Shown: positions 3 through 34,731 of the stretch, one piece after another
How positions within the stretch are numbered: the stretch's first letter is position 1
How the letters are laid out: the number at the start of each line of letters is the position of its first letter
Source of the DNA: Pseudomonadota bacterium
GTDB taxonomy: Bacteria; Pseudomonadota; Gammaproteobacteria; Steroidobacterales; SZUA-146
Assembly (NCBI GenBank): GCA_039028935.1
Contig: JBCCHD010000004.1
Location: 1 to 49,042, forward strand
DNA: 49,042 nucleotides
Reading direction: 5' to 3'
The notes under the pieces: generated by a model
Database searches by the model: none
Seen by the model: the letters and a program-made list of their open reading frames with translations, nothing else
What the model was told of the DNA's origin: nothing
Made by a program: the position numbers and the translations under genes

Positions 3-2549
3 GAAAACGAAAGCCTGGAGTCGATCAACATTGGCGCCTTGGGCGACCCTTCGCGAGGACCGTTTGTATTTAAAACAGTATCCGTGTTCCCTCAACAAGT
101 TCAGGAACTCATGAAAAACCCGCGTGGTTTTGTAATCCAACTCGCCAATTTTGATATTACCGACGCACTCGGTACGAACTTTGCTTTCACATCAAGGGAT
201 GTGCTTGATCGAACCGCAGGAATCTCCTTTGATTTAGGTGACGGTCGCGTTGAAAATTATCGTGTTGCCACCTCTAGCATCCACGACCCCGCCTCGGGTC
301 GGCCAGCCGGAATCACGATGGGATACGCGTTAGAGGTCATCGGGCTACAACGTTATGTGACGATCCGAGACGGAGGCAACGGTGTTGTTGATACGCTTGC
401 AGTAGATGGTGATGAACAGCTGCTTGCTGTTGGTGCCGCCGTCGAGCCCAATGAGGTCATTGTGGCCGTGGGCGACAATCAAACGTTGAGCACAGTGCCC
501 CAAGGCGACGACATATTGGTTGAGGCCGATTACGCCACCAGTCTAGTGGAGGACTTCGACACTATTGGTGATGGTGGAAACGGCCTGGCCGAGACCACAG
601 CCAGCGGCGATGATCTTCAAAACGTTTCGGTCGGTTCCGCCGTGGTGAGCGGGCAACCGATTATTGCAGTCGGCCCGAATGGCGTGCTCGACACAATCCC
701 TTTAGGAGACGATGCGATCGACTTGGCATCTGAACCCCCTCGACGAATGCTGACGCGTTTTCGTGACGTTGCAGCCGACGTGTCGACCAAGCGTTTCTGG
801 GCATTGTTTCAGCCGCAGGCCAGACCGGGCGTCGATCTTGACAACTACATCATTCGCTCTGGAGAACAGTTTAACTTTGCCTATGTGCAAGATAAAGACG
901 AAGACGGCGTTTGGGCAAGAGAAGAGTTTCTGCATGGCAGTTCCGATTTGCTGGTAAATACCGATGGCTGTACGCCACTGACGGCAGCCGATCAGTGTGA
1001 CTCGCTATCTGACAAAGAGGAAATTCAAGATGGTTGGCGCGTTCAACTGCGCGGTTCCCCACAGGCCTACCCGGTCTACCCGAATCCAAACCAAGGCGAT
1101 TCAGATCGGGACGGCCTGCTTGATCATGAAGAACGCAACTGCCTACTGGATCCTCGGCTGCGAGATTCCGACCTGGATGGCCTGACCGATTGGGAGGAGT
1201 TAACGGGTATGCGCATTGTAGAAGGAGCGATCACGCAAATGGTAAGTCGCGATCCCGACACCAATCTGATTACGTACGTCATCACGCCCTATGAAGGCGC
1301 GGCAACGGGCTGCGACGACAGCGAACCGCCGACCTGCAATTTGATCCCTCACGATGTGATCGTCGGTTGCAATACTGAAATTGATGCCCTTACCGGCGTT
1401 GGGTTTGCCACCGATCCACTCAATGCAGACACGGACGGTGATTTGGTGAACGACGCTGTGGAACTGAGCCTTGGCATCAACCCCAACGACTCTCAAGATG
1501 GACCGCTCTTTCTTGATGACGATGGTGATGGGGTTGCCAACTTTATCGAAGAGACCGGCTTTACTACCTACGTTAATGGCGTCGAAGTCACTTTTACATC
1601 GAACCCCAATAATCCAGACACAGACGGCGATTTACTACCGGATCTTCTCGAACATTTCATTCGTAGTAATCCTCGTAGCGTGGACACCGATGGGGATGGC
1701 ATCTCAGATAACAACGAGTATAGAAACGGCGGCGCCGCCTGCGTTACCCAAAATGTGGGCGAAACGTGTGTATCGTTTGCCGACCTGATCGAGAGTAGCT
1801 TCCAGTCCTACCTCTCGGAGTGTGAAGCCGCCGATGTCTGCAATAACACTACCATCGAGCAAACATTAGCCAGCCTCAATCAGTACGGAACGAATCTGAA
1901 CGAAAAAGACTCTGACTTCGACTCAGTCGATGATTTAGAAGAAATCGTCGGCGTGACTATCCAAGTCAATGATCTGAACGAAATGGTCAATTCAGACCCA
2001 ATAGCCAACAATTCGGACGCGGATTTACTGGACGATGGTGAGGAAAGAATGCTTGGCAGCAACCCTCGAGAAGCAGACACTGACGGTGACGGACGATTCG
2101 ATCATATCGAAAGAGATCTGGGTTTGGATCCTGCATTCCGTGACAGGTTGATATCGGTATCTTCCAGTGGCTTTCGCATTACAACTGCTGCCGAAGATGG
2201 CGAAATTGCAGAAATGGTATGGTGGGCTAACGTAAATAATAGCCAAGTCTGCTTCCTTCCAGAAAGAACGGTAAACCTGAACGAATTTGTCGATTTCACC
2301 TGCATTTACATCACTAATGCGGTGTTGCGTGACGATGGCTCGTCCATCACCGTCACTATGGCCGGACACGAAGTGGATGGCAGCTTCGACGGAATTGGAA
2401 TGGCCGACAACGATGAAGTGTGTAATCAGCAGACTGTCGTATTTACCTATGACGAACCGAGCACAAACAGCATTGAAAGAACGCACATATGTAACTCGGG
2501 TACGCCTGACTTGGGGTTCACGACGACCCTAACCGTGACGGAGCAATAG
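3..2549 (+). CDS. Thrombospondin type 3 repeat protein, 5' partial
   Basis: The reading frame is open to the left edge (codons from position 3), so the true start and any signal peptide lie outside the window; TTG at 39 is only the first internal start-like codon. Counting from that TTG, residues about 107-158 and 175-225 form two copies of a 50-residue repeat, each opening with DGGNG and closing with QGDD or LGDD. Residues about 285-720 hold some nine acidic loops such as DSDRDGLLDHEE, DTDGDLVNDAVE and DTDGDGISDNNE, the calcium-binding pattern of thrombospondin type 3 repeats. Paired cysteines are scattered between the loops. The C-terminal 120 residues look like a small beta domain with four cysteines. 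It is probably a large secreted or surface calcium-stabilised protein; no enzymatic motif was seen. The fold call is strong, the role unknown. Confidence 0.85.
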   Translation, partial: ENESLESINIGALGDPSRGPFVFKTVSVFPQQVQELMKNPRGFVIQLANFDITDALGTNFAFTSRDVLDRTAGISFDLGDGRVENYRVATSSIHDPASGRPAGITMGYALEVIGLQRYVTIRDGGNGVVDTLAVDGDEQLLAVGAAVEPNEVIVAVGDNQTLSTVPQGDDILVEADYATSLVEDFDTIGDGGNGLAETTASGDDLQNVSVGSAVVSGQPIIAVGPNGVLDTIPLGDDAIDLASEPPRRMLTRFRDVAADVSTKRFWALFQPQARPGVDLDNYIIRSGEQFNFAYVQDKDEDGVWAREEFLHGSSDLLVNTDGCTPLTAADQCDSLSDKEEIQDGWRVQLRGSPQAYPVYPNPNQGDSDRDGLLDHEERNCLLDPRLRDSDLDGLTDWEELTGMRIVEGAITQMVSRDPDTNLITYVITPYEGAATGCDDSEPPTCNLIPHDVIVGCNTEIDALTGVGFATDPLNADTDGDLVNDAVELSLGINPNDSQDGPLFLDDDGDGVANFIEETGFTTYVNGVEVTFTSNPNNPDTDGDLLPDLLEHFIRSNPRSVDTDGDGISDNNEYRNGGAACVTQNVGETCVSFADLIESSFQSYLSECEAADVCNNTTIEQTLASLNQYGTNLNEKDSDFDSVDDLEEIVGVTIQVNDLNEMVNSDPIANNSDADLLDDGEERMLGSNPREADTDGDGRFDHIERDLGLDPAFRDRLISVSSSGFRITTAAEDGEIAEMVWWANVNNSQVCFLPERTVNLNEFVDFTCIYITNAVLRDDGSSITVTMAGHEVDGSFDGIGMADNDEVCNQQTVVFTYDEPSTNSIERTHICNSGTPDLGFTTTLTVTEQ

Positions 2550-4562: not shown

Positions 4563-4585
4563 TGGGAGCTCCATTTAACCGTCGG

Positions 4586-11434: not shown

Positions 11435-11548
11435 CCGTCACTCAGACGCGCGGCGTGCTTTAGGGGATCTTCGCCGACGCCTTGAGCTGCCTATCGGTCT
11501 GATTTACTCTGGACGCTTCGATCACTTGACCCTTCGCGTCGCGCTCCG

Positions 11549-18387: not shown

Positions 18388-18474
18388 AAATCCTCGCAAA
18401 CCACTGTTTTAACTCCGGGAGTTTAGCATAGGGCGGTTGCCTAAGGCGCGTCGTTTCCCATAACGCGCACGACG

Positions 18475-20109
18475 CTACGGCGGTACGCGCATCGTCAGTC
18501 TAGGCGGTGTGAGCATCGGATCAGACGAAAGCCAGCCGCGCCGCAATCGCTCGCCCGACTCAATGGTTACCAGGCGATCCTCAAGACCACCCATTGGTGA
18601 CTCTCCGCTGCGCTGTATCGCCAGTTCGAGAAGACGTTTTGCCCGATCAAAATCGTTGAGCGCCGCAAATACCATCGCCAACGTTTCGGCTGCCGAGGTG
18701 TCTGGCCGCGTTTCTTCGAGGCGCTCGCCAATGTCCTGCGCCCGGCTGAGTTCCTCCGCATTCGTTGAGCAAACCGCGAAACTGCGCGCTAACCCTTGCA
18801 AAGCGGCCCGACTGTTGGCGTTCACCGCAACCGCCGCTTCAAACCAAGCGGGTGCGCGCTCGCAGTCCCCGAGCATTAACGCCGCCATACCGGCGTACTG
18901 TCGCGCCTCAAGATGATTGTCATGGCGATCGGCAACGAACTGATACTGAGTGAGCGCGTCCGCATAATCGCGCGAGCGAAACAGCGCATGCGCCAGTTGA
19001 ACACGAGCCGGCAAATAGTCACCGTCCAGCGCGACAGCACGCTCATAGTGGACCACGCTCTTCTCATCCATACCCTGACGCTCATACAAGGCGCCAAGAA
19101 AATACCAAGACACTGCCGTCTCGGCGTTGACGGCTAACCGGTATTGCGCTTCGGCGCCCTGAATATCCCCGACCACTTCCAGCGCACGGGCGTAGGCCAA
19201 GCGAGCCTGACCGTCGCTGGGTGCAATATCGACGGTGGCTGCAAAATCCTGGAGCGCGAGCGCAAATTGACGTTGGCGCATGCGCTCGACTGCTCGATCA
19301 TAAAAAAACGCCGGTCCACGCGAATACTCGGCCAGAGCCGCGCGTAAGGGCGTATCCGCCCCCAGCAACTGTGCGCTTCCGCTCTGTAACAGACGACGCG
19401 CTGCCCGCTCATTTCCTTGGAGTCGACTCAACGTTGCCGCGGCGGCATTGAGCGAGGACACGTCGGGCATCAGTTCTCGCGCCCGCGCCACGCGAGCCGT
19501 CGCTTCATCAAATCGACGTTCCAATAGCAACGCACGCGCGGCCACCATCTGCCAAGCGGCTTGGGTACGCGGCGTGGTTGTTTCAGTTTCGTCCGCTGCC
19601 GCACTCTCAAGGTTGCTCGCCAACGCATCAATGTCACTCAATGCGCCCACTCGATCGTCGCTGCGCAACCGCAATTCAGCGCGCGCAAACCGAACTTCGG
19701 CGTTTTCGCTTAGGGCCAGCGAGCGCTCGAAAGCGGCCAGCGCTTCATCATCTCGATGGATCGCGGCCAAGGCCAATCCAAAGTAATACTCATTGGGGGC
19801 AGTCGAGTGATCGGACACGGCCACACGCAGCGCATCGGCTGCGGCGTGGTCGAAATGATGGGCAAGATAAATTCGACCCAACTCGGCGTACGCCTGAGCG
19901 CGATCGGCGGCCGTCGGCGACTGGCGCACACGAAGTCGCCACTGTGCAACTGCGTTTTCCAGCGTGCGACGCACCTGCTCAGAGAGGAGCACAACGTCTG
20001 GGTGACGAATGCGAGTTTCGGGCGCGGGCTCGCTCTCGCAACTCATTAACCCCAGAGCCATTACGACCGCCATCACAACCGCTCGCCGCTGCCAACTCGC
20101 TCGCTTCAT
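18475..20109 (-). CDS. TPR lipoprotein
   Basis: A 544-residue protein with a lipoprotein signal (lipobox GLMSC, cysteine 24) and TPR units over most of its length, for example AYAELGRIYLAHHFDHAAADAL, broken by a helical hairpin region near 140-200. It is probably a periplasmic scaffold attached to a membrane. Its start overlaps the stop of the CRTAC1 lipoprotein gene by four bases (ATGA), so translation is coupled and the two products are likely made in fixed ratio. TPRs bind peptide segments; the FG-GAP protein is the obvious candidate partner, by inference from coupling. No catalytic motif was seen. Confidence 0.88.
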   Translation of the reverse strand: MKRASWQRRAVVMAVVMALGLMSCESEPAPETRIRHPDVVLLSEQVRRTLENAVAQWRLRVRQSPTAADRAQAYAELGRIYLAHHFDHAAADALRVAVSDHSTAPNEYYFGLALAAIHRDDEALAAFERSLALSENAEVRFARAELRLRSDDRVGALSDIDALASNLESAAADETETTTPRTQAAWQMVAARALLLERRFDEATARVARARELMPDVSSLNAAAATLSRLQGNERAARRLLQSGSAQLLGADTPLRAALAEYSRGPAFFYDRAVERMRQRQFALALQDFAATVDIAPSDGQARLAYARALEVVGDIQGAEAQYRLAVNAETAVSWYFLGALYERQGMDEKSVVHYERAVALDGDYLPARVQLAHALFRSRDYADALTQYQFVADRHDNHLEARQYAGMAALMLGDCERAPAWFEAAVAVNANSRAALQGLARSFAVCSTNAEELSRAQDIGERLEETRPDTSAAETLAMVFAALNDFDRAKRLLELAIQRSGESPMGGLEDRLVTIESGERLRRGWLSSDPMLTPPRLTMRVPP

Positions 20110-21779
20110 GGGCTGCCCTCACCGCGGATGAGCGTGTGATACCGCGGCTGAGAGACCAAACGAAACTCTTCGCGATCACCCTCTGGCCACACGACCTCCA
20201 CGACGAGCGCTACAGGGTCGGCAGGTGCGGGGGCAGACTCACGATAAAACACCAAGCGTGAATCGCCAGACGACAAATAACTATGGCCGGGTCGGTATTC
20301 GCGTGCCAACGATGCGCTGGGTTCCAGTAAGCGCACCCGCGCCCCGGATATCACGCTCGACGAGTTTGACACTAGGCGCACCCCCACCCATTGACCCGGA
20401 TTCGTCCGGTTGCGTAGCACTTGCACGCCGCTGTCGCTAGTGATCACAAGATCAAGATCACCGTCGTTATCCAAATCACCAGCCGCCACTCCGCGCGACA
20501 CATCGCTTCGTGGGGTTAGCGGTTCGATCTGTTCAGGTGCCTTGCGAAAACCCTGGGCCTCACCGCGCCCCATAAACAGGCCATTGCTTTGTCGAAGCGG
20601 AAGCGTGTCGCTCGCGTCGAGCTGACGCTGCTGCTGTCGCCACGCACCGTTTGCTACGTATACATCAAGCCAACCATCCGCATCGGCGTCTAACAACGCT
20701 AAACCGCCGCCGCTTTGCGCGACGCTCACCCCACCGGCGCCAAACGCCATCGGCAAAAAGACATTGCCTTCGTTGATGAGTAATTGGTGCGATTGACCTT
20801 GATCCAGCGCCACCACCAAATCCATGTCACCATCACGGTCTAGATCAGCGGCGTCGACGCCGACGCTGCGCGTTTGATCCGCTACGAAACCGCTGGCCAG
20901 GCCGTATTCGCGCGCGCGATTTTCAAAGCCTCGACCGGCACGATTTACCCAAAGGGCGTTGTCAACACCGTAATGACTGACGTAGACATCTGGCCAATCG
21001 TCGCCGTTCACATCCAGGATGCGCATACTGACACTCGGCGCCTGCACGCGCGTCAGACCCCATTGTCTCGAGACATCTTCGAATCGCGGCGTCAGGCCAT
21101 CCCCGTTCTCGTCAACGCCACGATTGAGAAACAGTCGATCAGACAGCGGCGCGTAATCGGTGAGCGCACAATAATCCGGCAGGCTGGTATTGGACCGACA
21201 CACCACATCGGCGTCAAACGCCGCCACGCCCGTCACGTAGAGATCCGGCCATCCATCACGATTGGCATCAAACCACACCGCAGACGCGCTCCACTGTGCG
21301 AGCGACGACACCGCGGTATCGGCCGAGCGCCAACCCTCGTTCGTATTCAGCAACAGTTGGTCGGTCTCGGTCGTTGTGATCAGAACATCGAGACGGCCAT
21401 CGCGGTTTGCGTCCGCCACCGCGATACCCGCCAGCCTCCCCGCTTGCGAGCTACGCGGTAAACGCGGCCCCGGAGTAAACCGTAAGTCACCGTCGGATTC
21501 ATTCAGCCACAGCTGACTAAATGCCGTTGAAGTGCCGGCGTCTTGTCCTCCTTTGACAAGAACAACATCCAGATCGCCGTCGTTATCGGCATCCAATAAG
21601 GCAACGCCGGTGCCCATTATCGCCGGTAGTGACAATGTCGGGGCCACCATGCTCTGACGCTCTACCACCATGCCACTGAGCTCGGTCACATCCTCAAATA
21701 ACGCATCCGACCGTGGTTCGCTGCAGCCCGCCAGCAGCACCAGAAGCGTCCCTAACCATACTGTTGATATCGCTTGCAC
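20106..21779 (-). CDS. CRTAC1 family FG-GAP/VCBS lipoprotein with ASPIC/UnbV domain
   Basis: A 557-residue lipoprotein (lipobox LLAGC, cysteine 19) that folds as a beta propeller of FG-GAP/VCBS repeats: LDADNDGDLDVVLV, DANRDGRLDVLI, DANRDGWPDLYV, DVNGDDWPDVYV, DLDRDGDMDLVV, DADADGWLDVYV and DLDNDGDLDLVI are the calcium-loop repeats. The last 95 residues match the ASPIC/UnbV domain (ARVRLLEPS, RPGHSYLSSGDSRLVF, VVWPEGDREEF). This is the CRTAC1 architecture. The start is GTG at 21779, with AAAGG upstream. It is the first gene of an operon with the TPR lipoprotein and two TPR-sulfotransferases. Molecular role not established; adhesion or an assembly scaffold are possibilities. Confidence 0.9.
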   Translation of the reverse strand: MQAISTVWLGTLLVLLAGCSEPRSDALFEDVTELSGMVVERQSMVAPTLSLPAIMGTGVALLDADNDGDLDVVLVKGGQDAGTSTAFSQLWLNESDGDLRFTPGPRLPRSSQAGRLAGIAVADANRDGRLDVLITTTETDQLLLNTNEGWRSADTAVSSLAQWSASAVWFDANRDGWPDLYVTGVAAFDADVVCRSNTSLPDYCALTDYAPLSDRLFLNRGVDENGDGLTPRFEDVSRQWGLTRVQAPSVSMRILDVNGDDWPDVYVSHYGVDNALWVNRAGRGFENRAREYGLASGFVADQTRSVGVDAADLDRDGDMDLVVALDQGQSHQLLINEGNVFLPMAFGAGGVSVAQSGGGLALLDADADGWLDVYVANGAWRQQQRQLDASDTLPLRQSNGLFMGRGEAQGFRKAPEQIEPLTPRSDVSRGVAAGDLDNDGDLDLVITSDSGVQVLRNRTNPGQWVGVRLVSNSSSVISGARVRLLEPSASLAREYRPGHSYLSSGDSRLVFYRESAPAPADPVALVVEVVWPEGDREEFRLVSQPRYHTLIRGEGSP

Positions 21780-24063: not shown

Positions 24064-25206
24064 TCAGAGCAACGAAAGCTGCGCCTGAGCCGGGTGATGT
24101 CGCACAAATAAGTCAGTATTGAGCTGAAGCCGGCTGTCAACGTCCAGTCCGGCCGCTTTGACCGCCTTATCAAACCGCGACTGAATCATCTTTGCGTAGG
24201 GTCCACTGCCGATCATGCGCTCACCGAACGTTGTGCTATTGGCGGTGCCATCTCGTGCTTCGCCAATGAGGTTGAGCACATGGCGGGCGCGCAACGGATA
24301 GTGGTCAATGAGCCATTCGGCGAACAGCTCCTTCACCTCTAAGGGCAAGCGTAAAAAAATATAGCGCGCACTGCTCACACCCGCCTCAGCGGCGGCGTGC
24401 ACGATGCGCTCGATTTCGTGATCATTGAGTGCCGGGATGACAGGTGCGAGAAGCAAGGTAACGGGAATGCCGCGGTCGCGGAGTGCGCGGATCGTATTAA
24501 GACGCGATGCGGGCGACGCGGTGCGCGGCTCAAGCGTGCGCTTCAGGCCATTGTCGAGTGTCGTCACACTGATTGCCACCGACACCAGCCGCCTTGCGGC
24601 GAGGCGTTCGAGAATATCCAGATCGCGTTGGATCAAAGCACCTTTGGTGATGAGGGTAAGTGGGTGATCCAATCGATCAAACACCTCGAGCAACTGCCGG
24701 GTAATGCTATGCGTGCGTTCGACCGGCTGATAGGGATCGGTATTGGCACCGAGATTGATCGGTGAACACACGTAATTTGGTGCCATCAGTTCTTTTTCTA
24801 ACAACGCAGCCGCATTCGTTTTCGCATACAAGCGGGTTTCGAAATCAAGCCCCGGCGATAGATCCAAATAGCTGTGGCTCGGTCGAGCGTAGCAATAGAC
24901 GCACCCATGCTCGCAGCCACGATACGGATTAACCGACTGATCGAACGGCACATCTGGCGATTGATTGCGGCTGATGATCGAGCGCGATTGTTCGCGTGTC
25001 ACGTGAGTCGGTACGCGACTCGGTGGCAGGTCCTCGTCGCACAACCCATCGTCCACCACCGCCTCGCGGATACACTCGGCAAACCGTGGCGTAGGTTGCG
25101 ACGCGACCCCGCGCCCTGGGCGGACCGTTCGATGAAGCGGTGCATTGAGGTTGGCCACCCGGGATGTGGCGCCTTCGAATAGATCTTGGATGGCGTCGTG
25201 TTTCAT
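24064..25206 (-). CDS. PA0069-family radical SAM protein (SPL-like), SOS-linked
   Basis: A 380-residue radical SAM protein of the COG1533/PA0069 (Rv2578c-like) family. The iron-sulfur motif C-x3-C-x2-C lies at 98-105 (GCEHGCVYCYARPSH), preceded by the family block SVNPYRG; later blocks include GANTDPYQPVE, TKGALIQRDLDIL and LAPVIPALND. The family is related to spore photoproduct lyase and is often annotated as a DNA repair photolyase, but the reaction is not established. The ATG at 25206 is directly preceded by a LexA box and a sigma70-like promoter whose predicted start is within about three bases of the ATG, so the mRNA may be leaderless. It is the last gene before a convergent stretch with glpK. 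Confidence 0.9.
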   Translation of the reverse strand: MKHDAIQDLFEGATSRVANLNAPLHRTVRPGRGVASQPTPRFAECIREAVVDDGLCDEDLPPSRVPTHVTREQSRSIISRNQSPDVPFDQSVNPYRGCEHGCVYCYARPSHSYLDLSPGLDFETRLYAKTNAAALLEKELMAPNYVCSPINLGANTDPYQPVERTHSITRQLLEVFDRLDHPLTLITKGALIQRDLDILERLAARRLVSVAISVTTLDNGLKRTLEPRTASPASRLNTIRALRDRGIPVTLLLAPVIPALNDHEIERIVHAAAEAGVSSARYIFLRLPLEVKELFAEWLIDHYPLRARHVLNLIGEARDGTANSTTFGERMIGSGPYAKMIQSRFDKAVKAAGLDVDSRLQLNTDLFVRHHPAQAQLSLL

Positions 25207-25223: not shown

Positions 25224-25243
25224 TATCTATCGATGCGCATCAA
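25215..25243 (-). promoter_or_regulatory. Sigma70-type promoter of the radical SAM gene
   Basis: On the minus strand TTGATG (25243-25238), a 17-base spacer and TATAAA (25220-25215). The -10 lies inside the LexA box. Transcription would start near 25208, about two bases before the ATG. The -35 overlaps the stop codon of the upstream CRTAC1 gene. Confidence 0.65.
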
Positions 25244-27081
25244 CGCCGCAAAGTATGCGCCCGATTTATTTCTAAATTATTGTAATTCATGATTTTTCCA
25301 TCAGGCCAGGTCACACTCACCCGCGCTTCGCGGGCGGTACCAAGGCCAAACGTCACATCGGCCGGCACCTGGGATAAATAGCTTCGAGCCGGCATGATGG
25401 TCTGTCGCTGCACGCTGTCGCCCGCCGTGAGGGTGACACTGGCGCCGATGGCGCGCGGGTTATCGCCGGGTTGCTGAAGCGCGATACGAATCCAAAAATC
25501 GCCGGTGCTCTGGTCGTTTCGCAGCACCAAGGGCGGAGCCCCTGTCTGAGTGAGCACGACGTCCTGATCGCCGTCATTATCGAGGTCAGCGGCCGCCGCG
25601 CCGCGCCCCACGATCGGCGTTGAAAACGCACCGAGCTGATCGTCCGCGATACGCGTATAGGTTCGTCGACAGGTTGGACCACAGTTCCAAAAAAGCTGTG
25701 CGGGCTGTGCGTGGCGCTGACTTGGCTGCACCGTATTAATGTCATCCTCCACATGCCCATTCGCTGTGAGTAAATCCGTGCGTCCGTCGAGGTCGGCATC
25801 GAAAAACTGCAAACCAAAACTCAGCGCACGACGGCTGTCAGGACCAATGCCCGAAACGATGCTCTCGTCAGTGAATACGTCACTGCCTCGCGACACGTAA
25901 AACGAACTCATCTCATTGGCAAAGTTACCAATCACAATCGCTACATCGTCGGAGTTTTGATAATAGGCCGCATCCACGCCCATGGCGCCCGTGGCGTTAC
26001 CACTGTTATCAAACGCCATGCCCATCACCGCACCCTGCTCATCGAACCGACCCTCGCCTTGATTGACGAAGACGAAATTCTGCACCGTGTCGTTGGCCAC
26101 CACAAGGTCAAGGCGTCCGTCGCGATTAATATCCATGGGCCGCACGGCCAGCCCCTTACCCACCGGGTTGTCAGTGGCCGGATTCGTCACGTGAATTCGC
26201 TCGCTCACGTCCACAAAGGTATCGCCGTCATTCCGCCACAATCGAGATTGCGTGCCCCGATAATTGGTAGGCGGGCCATAGGCTCGGCCGATACCGGTGA
26301 GTTGATAATCAACTTCAAAATCAATGTCGCGAGACCACACCACATAGTTGGTGCTGAATAGATCTAGGTCGCCGTCATTGTCCATGTCAAAAAACGCGGC
26401 GCTCGTGCTCCACTCATCGAGACCACCTTCAACCCCGAGAGACTCTTCGGTGAAGCGTTTGCCGCCTCGGTTACGCAGCAATCGATTCGAGCCCACCGCG
26501 GTCACATACAAATCCTCGTATCCATCGCCATTGTAATCACCGACTGCGACGCCCATGCCGTAATCAGACAGCGCCAGCCCCACCTCTGCAGTGACGTTCT
26601 CGAACCGCCAGTTTCCGCGATTGCGGTACAGCGCGTGAGTGGTAGCCGGCGCATCGATCTGCGTGGGCCATGCGGTGGAATTGACGAAGAAGATATCAAC
26701 CAGTCCATCGTTGTTGTAATCGAACAAGGCGACCCCACCACCCATCGTTTCAGGCAATAGCTTTTCGCCATACGCGCCGTTGTTATGCACAAACTGTATT
26801 CCGGCGTCCGCCGTCATGTCCGTGAATGGGATGCTCGGCGCATCGATTGTCACCGCGGCGACAGCAGCCGCTGCCGGTGCATTCGTTTCGATGACCTCAA
26901 CCTCACCTCGATCACGCTGTTGCCAGGCATAGATAGCGGCCCCGATAAAGGCAAGCCCTGCAAATACCCACAGCGAGCGGCGCAGATAAACACCAATAAT
27001 GGCGTCATCCTGCTCTTCGCTCTCCTCATTGAGTGAGTCCCAAATAGGCGCTTTGGAGGGACGTTTTCCCGGATCATTCAT
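25240..27081 (-). CDS. Membrane-anchored CRTAC1 family FG-GAP protein with ASPIC/UnbV domain
   Basis: A 613-residue protein with a 34-residue cytoplasmic tail, one membrane helix (about 35-53), then an extracytoplasmic propeller. The start of the mature domain (IPFTDMTADAGIQFVHNNG, ETMGGGVALFDYNNDGLVDI) is the classical CRTAC1 opening; more FG-GAP loops follow (DYNGDGYEDLYV, DMDNDGDLDLFS, DINRDGRLDLVV, DADLDGRTDLLT, DLDNDGDQDVVL). The final 75 residues are ASPIC/UnbV-like (NPRAIGASVTL, ARSYLSQV, VTWPDGK). It lies 30 bases downstream of the multihaem cytochrome gene, so the two are probably one operon and may form a complex. Unlike the 557-residue paralogue it is held by a helix, not a lipid. 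Role unknown. Confidence 0.9.
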   Translation of the reverse strand: MNDPGKRPSKAPIWDSLNEESEEQDDAIIGVYLRRSLWVFAGLAFIGAAIYAWQQRDRGEVEVIETNAPAAAAVAAVTIDAPSIPFTDMTADAGIQFVHNNGAYGEKLLPETMGGGVALFDYNNDGLVDIFFVNSTAWPTQIDAPATTHALYRNRGNWRFENVTAEVGLALSDYGMGVAVGDYNGDGYEDLYVTAVGSNRLLRNRGGKRFTEESLGVEGGLDEWSTSAAFFDMDNDGDLDLFSTNYVVWSRDIDFEVDYQLTGIGRAYGPPTNYRGTQSRLWRNDGDTFVDVSERIHVTNPATDNPVGKGLAVRPMDINRDGRLDLVVANDTVQNFVFVNQGEGRFDEQGAVMGMAFDNSGNATGAMGVDAAYYQNSDDVAIVIGNFANEMSSFYVSRGSDVFTDESIVSGIGPDSRRALSFGLQFFDADLDGRTDLLTANGHVEDDINTVQPSQRHAQPAQLFWNCGPTCRRTYTRIADDQLGAFSTPIVGRGAAAADLDNDGDQDVVLTQTGAPPLVLRNDQSTGDFWIRIALQQPGDNPRAIGASVTLTAGDSVQRQTIMPARSYLSQVPADVTFGLGTAREARVSVTWPDGKIMNYNNLEINRAHTLRR

Positions 27082-27111: not shown

Positions 27112-30000
27112 TTAATGCGAATCCCCGAAGCTGTCATGCCGAGGTTGGCGAGTTGAACTTAATGTATCGGAAGGAACCGCCCGCGGCCGCCGCTGCAAAT
27201 CGTTGATCACGATCGGGTCGGCGGCATGGTTGGCGGCCGCATTGTTGCGGCGCGCGGCGGCGATGGCGGCATCGCGCGCATTATCATCAGGCTTGTATTT
27301 GCTGTGCAGGTCACGGTGATACTCGGCATTTTCCAGTTCGTCGAGCAGCGCGTAGACCTGCGACAGTCCGTAGTGAGCCGTGGCGTTCTCAGGATCGATG
27401 GCCAGCGCTTGGGCATACGTTGTCTGCGCTTTGCTGAGCACCTGAGTGCGCATCTCACCGCGCTCGAGTTTGGACAACTCAACGTACGTATCCGCCAGCT
27501 GGTTGAGCAAACGGTAATCCTTGCTGAAATCAAAACCGCGCTCACGCGCGTTTTGGTAGCGCGTCGCCACTATGTTCTCGAAGTTCGCAACGGCTTGCTC
27601 AAGATAGCCGTTTTGCTTATTGACCAGGCCGGTAAAGTAATCCACCGACCAAGGCGGTGAGGGCGAATCGTGCTCGGCCGCTTGCTGCAACATGCGCACC
27701 GCGTCATCCAAGCGACCCTCACGAATGTAAACGCGCGCGAGGTTTAAATCGCCATCGGCACGGTCGAGCGCCTGCACGCGCTCGAAGGCATATTCCGCTT
27801 GACGCAATTCGCCGGCGCCCTGTTTGCGCAACAAACCGATGCCATAGTCGTTCCACCGCTGCCATAGCGGTACCGGATCACGCCGATCGCGGGCGATCGG
27901 CACGTCCGGATTCATCGGCTCGGCCGCGGCTTGGTAGCGCAGCGCGACGACCCGATCGGCATCGTCTTCCGGCGAGGCGATCACCTCGTCAGACGGCGCG
28001 ACCGGTAAGGTAACCTGGTCGCCAGCAATCGTAATGATCGGCAAATCGTTGTAGGCGTCGGCATCGTCGATAAAGAGTCGGTAATACGCCGTGTCAAACT
28101 TGCGGTAATGCAATCGCGCGTCCAACGTGACCGAAGCGACATCGTCCGGCACGGTAAAGCGATAGTGCACCACATCCGCCGCGCCGGGTGGAATCTGATG
28201 GTTGTAGAGCGGAGTGAAAATATCTTCGGCATTACGCTGCGCAATGCGATCACCGTTTTTATCCAGCACATAGGCATTGACAAAGTGCGACCACGGATCG
28301 ACCTCGCCCGTTTTGGGGTCGATTTTGCCGCTCGCTCCAATCATTTGATCGCCGGCGGTCACGGTCACCTCGACCCACACCTGGTTGGAGTCGGCCGTAC
28401 CTTGAGTAAACGGATGACCTAAGGTCAGCGTACGCAGCACTGTTTCGAGCAGATAGGTTTTGCCGGCTACCAACACCTGGCTGTCGGCCGTTAGCGGTGC
28501 ATGTAATAACCCATCGATGCGACCTTCTTCTTTGAGGCCAAATAGATCGACGCGCAACGATCCTTCCAGCATCTTACGATGCGCGTCGTTGGCTCGATCG
28601 CCAAATCCCAACACATGCGGAATCGCCGTATTGGCGCTTGGGAACTGATGGTTATGCACTTTGAGATCGCCCGAGTCATCCAGCGCCTTGGCGCCGAAAT
28701 CGTCTGAGATCTCATGTTTCATATGGCAACCGTTACAGTTGGTCTGGGCGTTAGGTGGATAGTAAAAACTGGTGATGCCATGACCGGATACACCACTGAG
28801 CAAAAACGTATCGTAGTGATTTTGTCCGCGCAGCCACTTGTAGTCGTTGAGCTCCTCAGGCAAATGCACTTTGTGGCAGGTCCCGCAAAACTCGGTGGTC
28901 TTGTGCAACGGCTTTAAGAAGGTCTTTTTGTGGAACTCTGGCTTGGCTTTGACCAACAGACGATTAATCGCCTGCAGCGATGGGTTGTCGCTGTAAGCGA
29001 AGGGATAGTGCAGCGGCTCTTCGATCGTGTAGTCAGCGTTTCCACGCACACTGTTGATATGCGTAATCGCATGACAACTCGTGCACGTGATGCCCGCATG
29101 GGCGGTCGGATGATTCACATCATCAAAATTTGGGTCGTCAAACGCACCACTGAAAAACGGCACCGGGTCATGGCAACCCGCGCAAAAACGCGCTGCCTGC
29201 ACCGAGCCATCGCGCTCCATCGACATCGCCCGCGTGCCGCGCACCGAAAAAAGGTACGCGGGGTTATTGAAGGAACTGATGTGGTGCATGCTGTCTTGCC
29301 AGCTCGCGTGGGTATCGGCGTGACATTGCTCACAGTAGCCGTCCATCATCAGTGCTTCTTCTGGAATAAACTGCCCGCTTGCGGTACGCGCAAGCGACGG
29401 GAAAAAGTACTGCTCGCCACTTTCTGGGCCCTCGACATTCCATTGGCGTGGGTCGCGCATTTGCCAAACAAGCGCGACGGCCGTCAATGTGGCGGCAACG
29501 CCGCCTACCCACAGGCCCGCTCGCCAATTGATACGCCGCCCGGCGAGTCGATGAAGCACAAACAACCAGACTATGAGTAGCGGCGACAACGCGTGCAGCC
29601 AATAAGCCGTGCTACGAGCACCCTCGTGCCGAATCTCCACAAGGGGCACACCGCGCGTTAGCGTGAGTCCGGTAATCAGTAGCACGATTGCGACGAAAAA
29701 CAGCGCGTACCCTACCTTCACGGCACGACGATTAGGACGATTGTGCGCGTTCTTAATATGAATCGCGCCGTACACGATGACCGGCAGAATCACAATCAAG
29801 CCCAGCGCCAAATGCGCTAAGAACATGTACTGATAGAAAAAGTTCTGGTACGTATTGCCGGTGCTCCACTCGAGCAGCGACGTCGCGACCAAGTAAATAG
29901 CATTCGCCGACAATAGTGCGAACAGCACGAACACTGCGATTAGCAGCTTCTTGAGTTTCGGCCCTACGGCCGGCACATATTTTCTTCTCTTGCGCGTCAT
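27112..30000 (-). CDS. Multihaem cytochrome c with five-helix membrane domain and TPR tail
   Basis: A 962-residue protein. Five membrane helices are visible at about 18-40, 59-82, 98-115, 133-150 and 162-179. Five CxxCH haem c sites follow: CEQCH 223, CAGCH 273, CTSCH 306, CGTCH 372, CNGCH 422. A beta-rich region (about 470-680) and TPR units (about 715-935) make up the rest. With the positive-inside rule, H63/H136 fall near the outer face and H81/H150 near the inner face of helices 2 and 4, as in dihaem b cytochromes; this pairing is my inference. The protein could pass electrons between the quinone pool and the periplasm. Next gene, 30 bases on, is a CRTAC1 protein. The Shine-Dalgarno sequence is poor. 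Confidence 0.85.
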   Translation of the reverse strand: MTRKRRKYVPAVGPKLKKLLIAVFVLFALLSANAIYLVATSLLEWSTGNTYQNFFYQYMFLAHLALGLIVILPVIVYGAIHIKNAHNRPNRRAVKVGYALFFVAIVLLITGLTLTRGVPLVEIRHEGARSTAYWLHALSPLLIVWLFVLHRLAGRRINWRAGLWVGGVAATLTAVALVWQMRDPRQWNVEGPESGEQYFFPSLARTASGQFIPEEALMMDGYCEQCHADTHASWQDSMHHISSFNNPAYLFSVRGTRAMSMERDGSVQAARFCAGCHDPVPFFSGAFDDPNFDDVNHPTAHAGITCTSCHAITHINSVRGNADYTIEEPLHYPFAYSDNPSLQAINRLLVKAKPEFHKKTFLKPLHKTTEFCGTCHKVHLPEELNDYKWLRGQNHYDTFLLSGVSGHGITSFYYPPNAQTNCNGCHMKHEISDDFGAKALDDSGDLKVHNHQFPSANTAIPHVLGFGDRANDAHRKMLEGSLRVDLFGLKEEGRIDGLLHAPLTADSQVLVAGKTYLLETVLRTLTLGHPFTQGTADSNQVWVEVTVTAGDQMIGASGKIDPKTGEVDPWSHFVNAYVLDKNGDRIAQRNAEDIFTPLYNHQIPPGAADVVHYRFTVPDDVASVTLDARLHYRKFDTAYYRLFIDDADAYNDLPIITIAGDQVTLPVAPSDEVIASPEDDADRVVALRYQAAAEPMNPDVPIARDRRDPVPLWQRWNDYGIGLLRKQGAGELRQAEYAFERVQALDRADGDLNLARVYIREGRLDDAVRMLQQAAEHDSPSPPWSVDYFTGLVNKQNGYLEQAVANFENIVATRYQNARERGFDFSKDYRLLNQLADTYVELSKLERGEMRTQVLSKAQTTYAQALAIDPENATAHYGLSQVYALLDELENAEYHRDLHSKYKPDDNARDAAIAAARRNNAAANHAADPIVINDLQRRPRAVPSDTLSSTRQPRHDSFGDSH

Positions 30001-30360: not shown

Positions 30361-33300
30361 CTAGTAACTGTCACGATATCGGGTGTTAAATTGCTCGTGC
30401 AGTCGTTCATTGGCCGACGGTAAGACAGGCAGTGGCCCCACTGTGCCCGAATTTTGCGTGTACATATCCATATCTTTGGCGTAGCCCGACACAAACAATA
30501 CGTATCGACGCGTCCAGCCATCGTGAAGCCGGGCTGGCTGTTCAAAGCTCAGCTCAACATCCTCACCCGGACCAATCACGACAAATGCGCCGTCGGTCTG
30601 TTCCAAAAGAGGGCGCACATCGCCCAATTTTGAGTAGTAACCTTTGGGATAACGCGTGTCCCAAAACGGTACGCGTCGATCGAAGTCATAGTCTGGGCGT
30701 TTCTGTGGCTGAGCGATACGCAGTGGAAAGCCGCTCTGCATTAGCTCTGCCCCGCGCAGCGCCAGGAACTGCCGCTTGATGTCAGACTCGCGCACGTCAA
30801 CCTCTTCGACAACGCTCAACGCATCCCAATAAATCTCTAAATTGCTGCTGAGTCGTAATTGTGTCGTCCCTGCAGGGAGCGCACCCAGCGGCACGGACAT
30901 CTCTCGAGGCATACCGGCCGGATAGCCAAAGGCATTTAGCAGCATCACCCAATTGCCCCGCCCGTCGCCCGCTTCCAGTGACGGAGGTGTGTAGAGCGCA
31001 TTACTTTGCCACGCCGCGAACACCGTTTGTGAGTACGGGTATTCCACCCAACCACTGGCTTTGAGCAGAAGTGGGTTGTCCAACGTATCGAGAGGTTGAT
31101 CAAACTCGAGGGTGAGCGTACGGGTTGAATCGAGCATACCCAAAAAGCGAGGATGGGCATCGCCCAAGTCTGCCGCCATAAAATCCGTTGACCGCACGCT
31201 CGCCGTTACATCAAGACCGTCGTCGCGTGTTACGCGAACAGGCCGATGTTCACGCCGAAAATATTGAGCCTGCCCGGTGACCGTTGGCGCGCCGGTACCC
31301 ATGCGCTCATCCAGTACCATGTCAAGCCCAGGCGGCAGATCGTACGCGACAAGTTGCACCGTATCGAGCAACGCCAATTCCTCCATCGGCTCAGTAATTT
31401 TGAGCCCTAACACACCGTCTTTGGGCTGCATGGCGGATTCGGCGATGGCGAAGTACTCCCACGGTCGCGGCGCCCCATATCGCGCGTCCCCCTGTGCCGC
31501 AGGATCGTGCAAGAATCCGATACCGCCGACCCCCAGCACATCACTGACGAAGGCCCATTCATCGCCGTTCCAAGCAAACAGCACGGGACAACTCGACAGT
31601 TGTCGCTGGGTTTCAGTGATGCGATGAGTTTGGCCGGCGCGCAAATCCAGCTCGGTCTGAAAAACACCGTCTGACCAGTCAATGGCGATGTAATCGATGT
31701 GATCGTAAGTCCCCATACCCACCGACAAAGGCTGCGCGCTCTGTCCACGTCCGCTGTGCCGGTCGAAGGTGTCCTTGACTGTCCACGATGATCCACGCCG
31801 CACGGCGACACGCGTGCCCACGCCAGAACGATTGGAGCGCATCGAGTCGGCTTTTTCTTCCTGCCCCTCAAACGTCAGCGCTGTAAACAAGCCCCGGCCC
31901 GGCCCGGGCGGCAGGTGCACAAGCTGTTGTCCGCTCTCAGTGTTGATCACCGTGATGAGCGATGGGCCACGATCCGCATCCGCGACCAAAGGCAATGCCG
32001 AAACGACGGACGCGCGATAGCGAAACAGCTCGGATACCCCTGTGTCCCCAACGTCCAACACCGCGACGCCCTCGCCATCAACGAGCAGCAAATCCGGCAT
32101 TCCATCGCCGTTGAAATCGCTCACGGCCAGTTCCGCACTACGCGGCGACGAGGTCAAATTGACAGTGGCCAAAACCCGCTCTGTCCAACGGGGGGCATTG
32201 TCGCGTGACCAACGCACCAGCTCACCGGCCGTGGTGACGCCGTACAGCTCAACCCGGCCATCTGCATTGCGATCCATGGCGCTGAGCGCGAGGACGTCGG
32301 CATTGAGCAGGCTCTCAGGTACATTGGCCGCCGGCACATCGGCGGCGACTGAGTAATCCCATAAGCGATCGTTGAAGAGCACGGCCACGCCGCCCTCTTG
32401 CACGGCCAATAAATCAGTATCCCGATCCCCATCCAAATCGGTCGCCAACAACTGCCGTCCAGGTGCGTCACCAAAGAACAGATCGCGCTCGGCGCGAAGA
32501 CTTCGAAACGATCCGTCGCCGTTGTTATTAATCACATCATGAGCCCCGGCCTGATAGGCAATGAGCACATCCAGATCACCATCGTGATCCGCATCAACCA
32601 GCTGTAAGTCAGCGCAGGGGCGACCGGTGTTGGGCAACGCACGTGGTGCGTCCCACGCACCGGACGCGGCGGCCAACCGCACGTTGGCACCGCGCGCACC
32701 ACACGTGGCGAGGTCAACGCCTCCATCGTTGTCGATGTCGGCCCACGCGACCGCTGTTACCGCACCCACCTCGTCGAGCGTTTGAGTCTCTTTTTGATAC
32801 TCATCTTCTCCGGCACTCACTACCAGTGTCTGACCGTCTGGATTGTTGATAATAATATCCTGAAGGCCATTGCCCGCCAGATCACTGGTCGTTAGCGACC
32901 GAGACTGCGGCACATCGAACGTCGCAATAGTCTGCGGTGCGCCAAAAAGGGCCCCTTCTGGCATGTCCGCATCCACCGGCTCCCTCAAACCAATGGCGAG
33001 CGCGTTGGCCTTTGGGCCCATGCGGGTGTATTTGGTTTCGGCAAGACGCGCTCGAGGGTTGTCGGCCAGTCGCTCATAGACCGCCTGCATCTTGAGCCCG
33101 GCTTCCCGATTGCCTGACCGCACGTTGAGCAAAAATGCGCCGTAGTACGCGCTGCGCAAATACGGATCAAGTTCGATCGCGCGCTCAAACAGTGCGAGCG
33201 CTTTTTGGGGCGCCTCGGTTTGCGTGAGCACCGCTAAGTAATACGCGGCGTAGGCATCACCCGGATCGCCGTCGAGCACGGTCTGGTAGTGCTGCTTGGC

Positions 33301-33699
33301 GCGATCCGCGTCGCCGGCACGTTCTGACAACAAACCCGAGACAAAATGCGCGCGCAAATTATCCGGCGACTGCGCCAACACCTCATCTAAGTAGCCGCGT
33401 GCCAACACTTCATCGCCGTCCATCTGTCGGTTGAGCGTGGCAATGGCCAGGTTAATTTTCACATCCGCCCAATCGGGCTGTCGGTCCACGGCCTCGCGAA
33501 AGGCCTCACGCGCGCCGGCGTAGTCAAAGTAGCCCATGAGCGCGACACCGCGATTATTAATGTCGATATCTTTGGCGCCGAGTGGGCGTTGATCGACGGA
33601 TGATTCACCCGTGTCGCCGCATGCCGCGAGCGCGAGGACCATCAACCAAAGACAGGGCCGCCAGTGCGTAAGCCGATTCAAACCTATGTGAGCGAACAT
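30361..33699 (-). CDS. TPR/FG-GAP/ASPIC-UnbV lipoprotein with large C-terminal module
   Basis: A 1112-residue lipoprotein (lipobox LALAAC, cysteine 27). Order of parts: TPR units (about 45-230; DINNRGVALMGYFDYAGAREAF, AHFVSGLLSERAGDADRAKQHY); FG-GAP/VCBS repeats (about 255-610; DIDNDGGVDLAT, DADHDGDLDVLI, DLDGDRDTDLLA, DRNADGRVELYG, DFNGDGMPDLLL); an ASPIC/UnbV-like segment (about 620-700; NRSGVGTRVAVR, SVGMGTYDHIDYIAIDWSDG); and a C-terminal module from about 702 to the end opening with CPVLFAWNGDEWAFVSDVLG and closing with GYAKDMD and PLPVLPSANERL. I know similar C-termini in TPR/FG-GAP proteins but no function for them. It follows the nitrilase gene by three bases. It effectively fuses the two partners encoded separately at 18475-21779. 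Confidence 0.88.
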   Translation of the reverse strand: MFAHIGLNRLTHWRPCLWLMVLALAACGDTGESSVDQRPLGAKDIDINNRGVALMGYFDYAGAREAFREAVDRQPDWADVKINLAIATLNRQMDGDEVLARGYLDEVLAQSPDNLRAHFVSGLLSERAGDADRAKQHYQTVLDGDPGDAYAAYYLAVLTQTEAPQKALALFERAIELDPYLRSAYYGAFLLNVRSGNREAGLKMQAVYERLADNPRARLAETKYTRMGPKANALAIGLREPVDADMPEGALFGAPQTIATFDVPQSRSLTTSDLAGNGLQDIIINNPDGQTLVVSAGEDEYQKETQTLDEVGAVTAVAWADIDNDGGVDLATCGARGANVRLAAASGAWDAPRALPNTGRPCADLQLVDADHDGDLDVLIAYQAGAHDVINNNGDGSFRSLRAERDLFFGDAPGRQLLATDLDGDRDTDLLAVQEGGVAVLFNDRLWDYSVAADVPAANVPESLLNADVLALSAMDRNADGRVELYGVTTAGELVRWSRDNAPRWTERVLATVNLTSSPRSAELAVSDFNGDGMPDLLLVDGEGVAVLDVGDTGVSELFRYRASVVSALPLVADADRGPSLITVINTESGQQLVHLPPGPGRGLFTALTFEGQEEKADSMRSNRSGVGTRVAVRRGSSWTVKDTFDRHSGRGQSAQPLSVGMGTYDHIDYIAIDWSDGVFQTELDLRAGQTHRITETQRQLSSCPVLFAWNGDEWAFVSDVLGVGGIGFLHDPAAQGDARYGAPRPWEYFAIAESAMQPKDGVLGLKITEPMEELALLDTVQLVAYDLPPGLDMVLDERMGTGAPTVTGQAQYFRREHRPVRVTRDDGLDVTASVRSTDFMAADLGDAHPRFLGMLDSTRTLTLEFDQPLDTLDNPLLLKASGWVEYPYSQTVFAAWQSNALYTPPSLEAGDGRGNWVMLLNAFGYPAGMPREMSVPLGALPAGTTQLRLSSNLEIYWDALSVVEEVDVRESDIKRQFLALRGAELMQSGFPLRIAQPQKRPDYDFDRRVPFWDTRYPKGYYSKLGDVRPLLEQTDGAFVVIGPGEDVELSFEQPARLHDGWTRRYVLFVSGYAKDMDMYTQNSGTVGPLPVLPSANERLHEQFNTRYRDSY

Positions 33700-33702
33700 G
33701 CG

Positions 33703-34731
33703 TTAGCGATCCTTCTTGGTTGGCGTGAGGGACGATTTGGCGGTATTGATGCGGGCCTTGAGCGACTCAATCGAAATCGGTTCATCGCCAGCGGGTGCCA
33801 AATAGTCGCGCTGATAGTAACTGTGGGCACCCGTGCGAAGGTGCGCACGCATGTCATGCCCTTCGCGACGTGCGCGCTCATGTCGCAAGGCGGGTAGATT
33901 AATCGGTGCCACTACGACTCGCTCGCCCGGCCCCGGATCGGCTTGCGCCAATACGCGGCCATCGTAATCTACCGCCATACTGCCGCCCGGCCAACAAAAT
34001 GGCGGATAGTGGGCAAATTCCGCGCCTTGATTAGACGCCACTACGTAGGCCGTGTTCTCGATTGCGCGCGTCTGATTGATCAATCCCCACCAGTTCATGG
34101 GTTCCGCCGTGCCCCATGGATTCATATACGCCGAGACCCGAATGATCACTTCGGCACCATTGAACCCGAGTTGCCGAATGGTCTCCGGAAACAGCCAGTC
34201 GTAACATATGGCGACACCGAGCCTACCGATGTCGGTCTCGACGACCGGAAACAAGTCGTCTTGATAATTCGCTAAGTCAGCCGGAGACGTATGCACCTCC
34301 CACGGTATCCACGTGTTGACCTTTCGGTAGCGACTCAAGATACCGGTTGGGCCGATTAGCACTGTTGTGTTGAACAGCGCACCGGGATAGCGTTCATCCA
34401 CTTCCAAGAAGGTGCCAGTTTGAATGTATACCCCGAGTTTCTTGGCTACCCGTTCGTATTGTTCGGTATGCTCGTTGGGAATCGGTAACGCCAGTTTCTC
34501 TTTGAGCGCCGACACCGTGGGATACGCCGGCACCGCATGGGCAAATTCGGGAAACACAAACAATCGCACGTCGTAGAACGGCTCGTAGCCGGCTACCGTT
34601 TGCTCCAGCATCTGGCACATGCGCCGAGTATTGGCGGCAATACCGCTGCGGTCTGCCGGCGCCTCGAAGTCGGTTTGACACGCTGCCGCGTAGTAGAGGT
34701 CTGTCATCTGGTGTTCCATCTGACGGCGCAT
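33703..34731 (-). CDS. Carbon-nitrogen hydrolase (nitrilase superfamily)
   Basis: A 342-residue cytoplasmic hydrolase with the nitrilase-superfamily triad Glu62 (FPEF), Lys137 (YRKVN) and Cys176 (ICYDWLFPE). Features such as AYMNPWG, NQTRAIENTAYV and FCWPGGSMAVDYDGRVLA point to the amidase side of the family (aliphatic amidase, formamidase or carbamoylase); the substrate cannot be fixed. ATGs at 34731 and 34707 are both possible, with AGAGG before the first and GGAA before the second. It heads an operon with the 1112-residue lipoprotein gene, three bases downstream, an unexpected pairing of a small-molecule amidase with an envelope protein. Confidence 0.9.
   Translation of the reverse strand: MRRQMEHQMTDLYYAAACQTDFEAPADRSGIAANTRRMCQMLEQTVAGYEPFYDVRLFVFPEFAHAVPAYPTVSALKEKLALPIPNEHTEQYERVAKKLGVYIQTGTFLEVDERYPGALFNTTVLIGPTGILSRYRKVNTWIPWEVHTSPADLANYQDDLFPVVETDIGRLGVAICYDWLFPETIRQLGFNGAEVIIRVSAYMNPWGTAEPMNWWGLINQTRAIENTAYVVASNQGAEFAHYPPFCWPGGSMAVDYDGRVLAQADPGPGERVVVAPINLPALRHERARREGHDMRAHLRTGAHSYYQRDYLAPAGDEPISIESLKARINTAKSSLTPTKKDR

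What the first reader, a model, noticed from the sequence alone, without database searches (positions are those of the whole stretch)
27112..30000. One protein joins a possible dihaem b membrane domain, five haem c sites and TPRs
The five-helix N-terminus places His63 and His136 at one membrane face and His81 and His150 at the other, in helices 2 and 4, as in dihaem b cytochromes; basic loops at 83-98 and 151-160 agree with this topology. Five CxxCH motifs and a TPR tail follow in the same chain. That would form a complete quinone-to-periplasm electron wire, with the TPRs docking a partner, probably the CRTAC1 protein encoded 30 bases downstream. The CxxCH sites are seen directly; the b haems are inferred.
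Basis: partly seen in the sequence, partly recalled or inferred. Interest (0 to 1): 0.72.

Follow-up and report, generated by a model that had tools for sequence, protein, structure and literature searches.

The report
Membrane haem-b/c cytochrome with propeller partners
The gene encodes a membrane protein that most probably carries two haems inside the membrane and five outside it, and it tends to occur together with a calcium-type propeller protein in several bacterial phyla, pointing to a widespread electron-transfer system whose substrate is unknown.

Summary
The ORF is real: minus strand, 27112-30000, 962 aa, five CxxCH, a TPR tail, and a CRTAC1-type gene 30 bases downstream. AlphaFold puts the four histidines in helices 2 and 4; the best solved match is the dihaem subunit FdnI (E only 0.063). 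The periplasmic part is a pentahaem-plus-Ig-like (PHC) cytochrome like T. tepidum c552. New here: of 369 sampled class genomes, the 15 with this cytochrome are the same 15 with a CRTAC1 match (at my thresholds), four of them with the genes on different contigs. Of five distant TPR-less homologues, three have an adjacent partner with HEAT repeats instead. Single-chain dihaem-b/multihaem-c proteins are known (CbcL), with opposite domain order. Quinone binding, direction of electron flow, substrate and TPR-to-CRTAC1 contact remain inference.

The parts
27112..30000 (-). b-PHC cytochrome: five-helix dihaem b domain, pentahaem c domain, Ig-like domain, TPR tail (962 aa)
29458..29961 (-). five-helix membrane domain (residues 14-181)
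29812..29814 (-). His63, proposed axial ligand of the periplasm-side b haem
   Evidence: His in 102 of 102
29593..29595 (-). His136, proposed partner ligand of His63
   Evidence: His in 102 of 102
29758..29760 (-). His81, proposed axial ligand of the cytoplasm-side b haem
   Evidence: His in 102 of 102
29551..29553 (-). His150, proposed partner ligand of His81
   Evidence: His in 102 of 102
28561..29364 (-). pentahaem c domain (residues 213-480)
   Evidence: five CxxCH; 5ze8 Z 16.4 over 213..665
29320..29334 (-). CxxCH 1 (CEQCH, 223-227)
   Evidence: read directly
29170..29184 (-). CxxCH 2 (CAGCH, 273-277)
   Evidence: read directly
29071..29085 (-). CxxCH 3 (CTSCH, 306-310)
   Evidence: read directly
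28873..28887 (-). CxxCH 4 (CGTCH, 372-376)
   Evidence: read directly
28723..28737 (-). CxxCH 5 (CNGCH, 422-426)
   Evidence: read directly
27997..28557 (-). beta (Ig-like) domain, residues 482-668; carries invariant His529
   Evidence: strands; within the 5ze8 match
27223..27867 (-). TPR tail, residues 712-926
25240..27081 (-). partner A: FG-GAP/ASPIC (CRTAC1-type) propeller with a hydrophobic N-terminal stretch (by eye), 613 aa
   Evidence: PF13517 E 9.6e-34, PF07593 E 1.6e-17; directly downstream in 61 of 68 loci; same 15 genomes
30361..33699 (-). partner C: TPR + FG-GAP + ASPIC protein, lipoprotein-like N-terminus (by eye), 1112 aa
   Evidence: directly upstream in 15 of 46 loci with at least 4.5 kb upstream
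33703..34731 (-). nitrilase-superfamily hydrolase, 342 aa
   Evidence: PF00795; found in 14 of 80 loci and in 6 of 350 class genomes, all six cytochrome-positive
20106..21779 (-). second FG-GAP/ASPIC protein, lipoprotein-like N-terminus (by eye), 557 aa; membership of the set is tentative
   Evidence: PF13517 E 1.6e-38, PF07593 borderline (23.2 of 23.4 bits; over cut-off); best match of a flanking gene in only 2 of 80 loci, L048 and L053
18475..20109 (-). TPR protein, lipoprotein-like N-terminus (by eye), 544 aa; membership of the set is tentative
   Evidence: 24-26% relatives in 4 of 80 loci and beside CRTAC1 genes in L170

Best explanation
An inner-membrane electron-transfer subunit. Two b haems (H63/H136 near the periplasm, H81/H150 near the cytoplasm) span the membrane. 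They connect, in the same chain, to five c haems in a periplasmic PHC domain (pentahaem plus Ig-like). The TPR tail and the separately encoded CRTAC1-type propeller(s) form the docking and substrate-presenting part of one envelope complex. Electrons pass between the quinone pool and whatever the complex handles in the periplasm. Shown: gene, motifs, invariant His, predicted fold, conserved partner. Inferred: haem b occupancy, quinone, complex formation, docking. Direction is open; I lean about 55:45 to periplasmic donor to quinone, because the nearest solved folds (FdnI, HyaC) are recalled as working that way.
For: Only six membrane-domain columns are identical in 102 sequences, and four of them are the proposed ligands (21 of 21, 27 of 27). 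Topology charges agree. The membrane model (pLDDT 90.9, pTM 0.83) hits FdnI first (Foldseek prob 1.00, E 0.063), and VIA-align's rows 1-15 are all chains of HyaC, b6f, bc1, superoxide oxidase or FdnI entries (Z 9.8-10.7). The periplasmic part matches pentahaem c552 5ze8 (Z 16.4, 342 residues, 3.7 A; profile E 2.5e-10). The CRTAC1 gene follows directly in 61 of 68 loci. The 15 cytochrome-positive and 15 CRTAC1-positive genomes of 369 are the same set. In G154 cytochrome and propellers lie mid-contig on two different contigs. The genome has cytochrome c assembly proteins (PF01578).
Against: No coordinates were returned, so His-His distances were not measured, and the models hold no haem. VIA Z of 8-10.7 is below the roughly 13 that the tool calls safe for helical bundles, and designed bundles appear from row 16. 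Foldseek E is only 0.063, and a designed bundle follows at E 0.94 with prob 0.92. P0001 has no match to PF01292 at E 0.1. Only five of the 102 sequences are below 46% identity to the window protein, so most of the set is fairly close. Five c haems but only four invariant non-motif His (239, 357, 451, 529), so one haem has another ligand or none. 7 of 68 loci failed the adjacency filter; two of these, L074 and L075, still hold a CRTAC1 hit nearby.
Confidence: 0.72

Rival explanations
1. The membrane domain is a dihaem b module, but the PHC domain is the catalytic part (a reductase or oxidase with one open or unusually ligated haem), and CRTAC1 proteins are stabilising or substrate-binding subunits; it is an enzyme, not a wire.
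For: Four invariant non-motif His for five c haems, with Q393, D580, R633 and K634 invariant in 102 of 102. By eye, K634 is not kept in the PHC proteins without the five-helix domain in L163 and L165.
Against: H366 (97 of 102) or H395 (94 of 102) could be the fifth ligand in most members; no catalytic residue was tested.
Confidence: 0.4
2. An extracellular electron-transfer quinol dehydrogenase in the CbcL manner, feeding an outer-membrane conduit.
For: Same combination of dihaem b and multihaem c in one chain as CbcL; PHC relatives in Geobacter and cable bacteria. One distant homologue (L013, in L130) lies near an 11-CxxCH gene and a sub-threshold MtrB/PioB match.
Against: No MtrB/PioB match in this genome, which is 96.9% complete. 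The conserved neighbours are propellers without haem motifs, not recognised shuttles or porins.
Confidence: 0.15
3. The five-helix region is only an anchor and the invariant histidines serve metal binding or structure.
For: No residue-level geometry could be measured here.
Against: Constant spacing, same helix face, invariant glycines 67 and 111 and fold match to dihaem cytochromes.
Confidence: 0.06

Closest known systems
CbcL/MtrH/MtoC (Geobacter and others; PMC9129911, PMC6295460, passages read)
   Same: One chain with a transmembrane dihaem b domain and a periplasmic multihaem c domain, between quinone pool and periplasm
   Different: CbcL has nine CxxCH in the N-terminal half and six helices in the C-terminal half; here five helices come first, then five CxxCH in a PHC fold, then TPRs, with CRTAC1 partners
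PHC family: T. tepidum cytochrome c552 (5ze8), ExtKL, Gsu2801, cable-bacteria sPHC/lPHC (PMC11976967, passages read)
   Same: Five CxxCH and an Ig-like domain in the same order; fold match over 213..665
   Different: The passages seen describe signal peptide, pentahaem, Ig-like and sometimes truncated haemoglobin domains, no dihaem b domain and no TPR. PHC-like hits at G283:C6:39763, G171:C4 and G053:C30 have no CRTAC1 match beside them among those listed (at most 3 candidates scored a genome)
FdnI / HyaC dihaem b subunits
   Same: Best solved folds of the membrane domain
   Different: No PF01292 sequence match in P0001; separate subunits rather than fused; ligand His placed differently (recalled for FdnI)
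CRTAC1-type genes beside hydrazine-synthase-like multihaem genes (PMC12758564, passages and section 7 read)
   Same: A CRTAC1-type FG-GAP gene sits with genes of haem proteins, one clade of which carries cytochrome c554 domains
   Different: Those are HZS alpha and beta-gamma homologues, not b-PHC proteins

Membership tests
PHC (pentahaem + Ig-like) cytochromes | five haem c motifs followed by an Ig-like beta domain, c552-like fold | tested here: met
   5 CxxCH in the window protein and in 80 of 80 loci; in distant L013 and L134 the first motif is CX4CH; 5ze8 Z 16.4, 342 aligned, 3.7 A; profile E 2.5e-10
ExtKL (NF040886) | score above the curated cut-off of 250 bits | tested here: not met
   19.1 bits
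CbcL/MtrH/MtoC | multihaem c domain N-terminal and b domain (mostly six helices) C-terminal | tested here: not met
   order is reversed and five helices (definition)
CbcL/MtrH/MtoC | dihaem b plus several c haems in one chain | tested here: inconclusive
   c motifs seen; b haems strongly inferred
Dihaem b cytochromes of the FdnI/HyaC/b561 kind | helical bundle with two pairs of His ligands | tested here: inconclusive
   four invariant His, 102 of 102; FdnI top Foldseek hit; ligand geometry not measurable here
Dihaem b cytochromes of the FdnI/HyaC/b561 kind | PF01292 sequence match above cut-off | tested here: not met
   absent at E 0.1 for P0001; L013 0.0015 and L033 0.041, below cut-off
NrfA pentahaem nitrite reductase | one CxxCK haem site (recalled; also named in a listing) | tested here: not met
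   all five sites are CxxCH; no other Cys in the protein
CRTAC1-type (FG-GAP + ASPIC/UnbV) for the neighbour 25240-27081 | PF13517 and PF07593 above cut-off | tested here: met
   116.2 and 63.6 bits against 26.9 and 23.4
Quinone oxidoreductase | quinone site and activity | not testable with these tools
   needs purified protein

The most novel reading that the evidence does not exclude
A respiratory complex not described in the papers searched, spread over Gammaproteobacteria, Planctomycetota, Acidobacteriota, Verrucomicrobiota and others: a b-PHC cytochrome that works only with calcium-type CRTAC1 propellers. An alpha-solenoid is an obligatory part of the complex, and evolution has moved it between chains (TPR on the cytochrome, or HEAT on the propeller). 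It handles a periplasmic substrate and exchanges its electrons with quinone.
Probability: 0.45. Interest if true: 0.8.

Novelty: new variant of a known kind. Interest (0 to 1): 0.62.

Why it matters
If right, it gives bacterial CRTAC1/ASPIC-UnbV proteins, for which I saw no assigned function in the listings and passages read, a concrete role as partners of a membrane cytochrome. It also defines a quinone-linked electron-transfer system shared by major environmental phyla. The same propeller type sits beside hydrazine-synthase-like genes (PMC12758564), so the pairing of propeller and haem protein may be a general design. Carriers whose records are not labelled MAG (Pseudoalteromonas sp. P1-9, Rhodopirellula solitaria, Rhodopirellula maiorica) should make it testable.

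Tried and rejected
EET porin: PF11854 gives 0 matches in the window's genome, so a classical porin conduit is not supported there. ExtKL as a family name: 19.1 bits against 250; 0 of 1 in the own genome. NrfA: no CxxCK. Sequence profile of the membrane domain against PDB: nothing below E 0.29; cytochrome b 8q1b at E 5.3 is not evidence. Pfam on relatives' membrane domains gave only sub-threshold hits (PF01292; COX15-CtaA E 2.1e-4 in L013; DUF4405 26.6 of 26.7 bits in L047). Foldseek with the full model listed only TPR or helical-repeat chains in the 50 rows shown, and VIA-align was filled by TPR chains after row 1, so neither says anything about the membrane domain; it was refolded alone for that reason. 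Partner cysteines or a haem site in CRTAC1: none conserved in 57 sequences, no CxxCH in these or the four distant partners (partners under 520 aa were left out). A first ORF script read one strand only and was redone.

Papers; in the listings, and in the passages read of PMC12758564, PMC9129911, PMC6295460, PMC11976967, PMC5615132, PMC3174227 and PMC12175321, I saw no description of this domain combination. Absence is claimed for those only.

The co-occurrence test uses thresholds I chose (1e-30 and 1e-40), scores few candidates a genome and does not correct for relatedness.

Full report
WHAT IS THERE. The finding's coordinates hold one ORF on the minus strand, 962 aa from ATG. It has five predicted membrane helices, five CxxCH, a beta domain and a TPR tail. 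Pfam sees TPRs and PF13435 (Cytochrome_C554, E 2.3e-5) but nothing above cut-off in the first 200 residues. The CRTAC1-type gene begins 30 bases downstream.

THE b HAEMS. A profile search gave 16 of 369 and 18 of 59. By record titles the 80 are 35 Planctomycetota, 17 Gamma- or other Proteobacteria, 13 Acidobacteriota, 11 Verrucomicrobiota and 4 others. An alignment of 21 keeps H63, H81, H136 and H150 in all 21; one of 101 in all 101; with the divergent L134 added, 102 of 102. The 102 form 98 groups at 97% identity; five are 26-28% identical to the window protein, the rest 46-79%. In the first 195 residues the columns identical in all 102 are exactly H63, G67, H81, G111, H136 and H150, with spacings 18 and 14 in every sequence. 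The search patterns came from the c-haem and beta regions, not from the membrane domain, though its hits were then ranked over the whole protein. Loop charges give an N-inside topology, which places H63/H136 at the periplasmic side and H81/H150 at the cytoplasmic side.

FOLD. AlphaFold2 on the whole protein with 81 sequences gave pLDDT 88.9, pTM 0.86, and on residues 1-190 alone 90.9 and 0.83. Foldseek with the latter has one top match, 1kqf chain C (FdnI, prob 1.00, E 0.063); the next is a designed protein at E 0.94, prob 0.92. VIA-align ranks HyaC, b6f, bc1, superoxide oxidase and FdnI chains in rows 1-15 (Z 9.8-10.7), with designed bundles from row 16. The tool warns that Z below about 13 can be generic for helical bundles, so this supports the His evidence and would not stand alone. 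No coordinates were returned, so ligand distances are untested.

THE c DOMAIN. The full model matches 5ze8, the penta-haem cytochrome c552 of Thermochromatium tepidum, at Z 16.4 over 342 residues (213..665). A profile of the domain finds 5ze8 at E 2.5e-10, cytochrome c554 at 7e-5 and the selenoprotein MccSep at 0.012. A cable-bacteria paper (PMC11976967; passages read) groups ExtKL, Gsu2801 and cable-bacteria proteins as a pentahaem family with an Ig-like domain and notes the structural likeness to c552; this protein's periplasmic part belongs with them by motif number, order and fold. Non-motif His invariant in 102 of 102 are H239, H357, H451 and H529, the last in the beta domain; so one of five haems lacks an invariant His partner. 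Q393 and K634 are also invariant and unexplained.

THE PARTNERS. The CRTAC1-type gene follows directly on the same strand in 61 of 68 loci with at least 600 bases downstream (45-57% identity). Misses are L058, L074, L075, L093, L110, L117 and L119, of which L075 has the hit in an ORF opening upstream and L074 has it 1.9 kb on. In the same-sized sample of 369 class genomes, the set with the cytochrome (E 1e-30) and the set with a CRTAC1 match (E 1e-40) are the same 15 genomes. In 13 of them the best match is 49-58% identical; in G073 and G276 it is 32-33%, the HEAT-bearing kind. Relatedness among genomes is not corrected for. In G099, G154, G335 and G401 the two genes are on different contigs. 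In G154 both lie mid-contig: the cytochrome without these neighbours, and on another contig a run of a partner-A relative (48%), a second CRTAC1-type gene (32% to A), a TPR protein (24% to 18475-20109) and a partner-C relative (41%). By position that second propeller corresponds to window gene 20106-21779, but its best window match is partner A, so including 18475-21779 in the set is tentative. The nitrilase-type protein was found in 6 of 350 class genomes at E 1e-80, all six cytochrome-positive; G053, cytochrome-positive, had none. G171, which has only a PHC-like match to positions 414-671, is not among the 15. Partner A has conserved Asp triplets typical of calcium loops (recalled) but no haem motif and no conserved Cys in 57 sequences.

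THE MOVING SOLENOID. Five distant homologues lack TPR matches. In three (L131, L132, L133) the adjacent gene is FG-GAP + ASPIC + HEAT repeats; in L134 it is FG-GAP + ASPIC without HEAT; in L130 no such gene was recognised next to it (not every ORF there was scanned). A solenoid is thus fused to the propeller in three of five and to the cytochrome in the TPR-bearing branch, which fits a joining role but does not prove contact.

HOW IT PROBABLY WORKS. Electrons pass between quinone and the periplasm through the two b haems and the c haems; the propeller(s) hold or present the partner substrate. Shown: sequence, invariance, predicted folds, gene linkage and co-occurrence. Inferred: haem b, quinone, complex, direction. 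No MtrB/PioB porin was found in the genome, cytochrome c assembly proteins are present, this is the only PHC match in the genome at E 0.001, and seven ASPIC matches are present.

AGAINST WHAT IS KNOWN. CbcL (PMC9129911 and PMC6295460, passages read) already unites a dihaem b domain with nine c haems, in the opposite order, with homologues of 3-23 CxxCH in 15 phyla. So the principle is known; the PHC type of c domain, the order, the TPR tail and the CRTAC1 partners make a new variant. The anammox paper (PMC12758564, passages and section 7) reports CRTAC1-annotated genes beside hydrazine-synthase-like genes, another pairing of this propeller type with haem proteins.

Noticed in passing
14352-16319 and 16324-18399 (-): Two neighbouring TPR + sulfotransferase proteins (PF13469) next to the TPR/CRTAC1 pair; for the second gene, relatives are the best match of a flanking gene in 6 of 80 loci.
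   Followed up: partly
34902-35480 (-): Small secreted-looking protein whose C-terminus resembles a PEP-CTERM sorting signal (recalled, not scanned).
   Followed up: no
24064-25206 (-): ORF with a radical-SAM-like CxxxCxxC motif (by eye), between partner A and the glycerol-kinase-like gene 22386-23864; no relative among the 80 loci (0 of 80).
   Followed up: no
L164 and L165: By eye, PHC-like matches lie near a flavoprotein-like ORF and a small two-CxxCH ORF, as in a sulfide-oxidising flavocytochrome c set (recalled); agrees with the sulfur role that PMC11976967 cites for c552. In L164 the PHC ORF itself was hidden by an overlapping ORF.
   Followed up: no
L130 (G034), 2910-5306 and 10870-12123: The distant homologue L013 sits near an 11-CxxCH protein and a TPR protein with a sub-threshold MtrB/PioB match (20.4 of 23 bits), so that branch may be linked to extracellular electron transfer.
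   Followed up: no
27112-30000 (-), residues 393, 580, 633, 634: Q393, D580, R633 and K634 are invariant in 102 sequences; by eye K634 is absent from the PHC proteins of L163 and L165. Possible active-site or haem-ligand residues.
   Followed up: no
L090, L112, L117: MAGs titled Akkermansia muciniphila carry this gene, whose other carriers are mostly environmental; the labels may be wrong (not tested).
   Followed up: no
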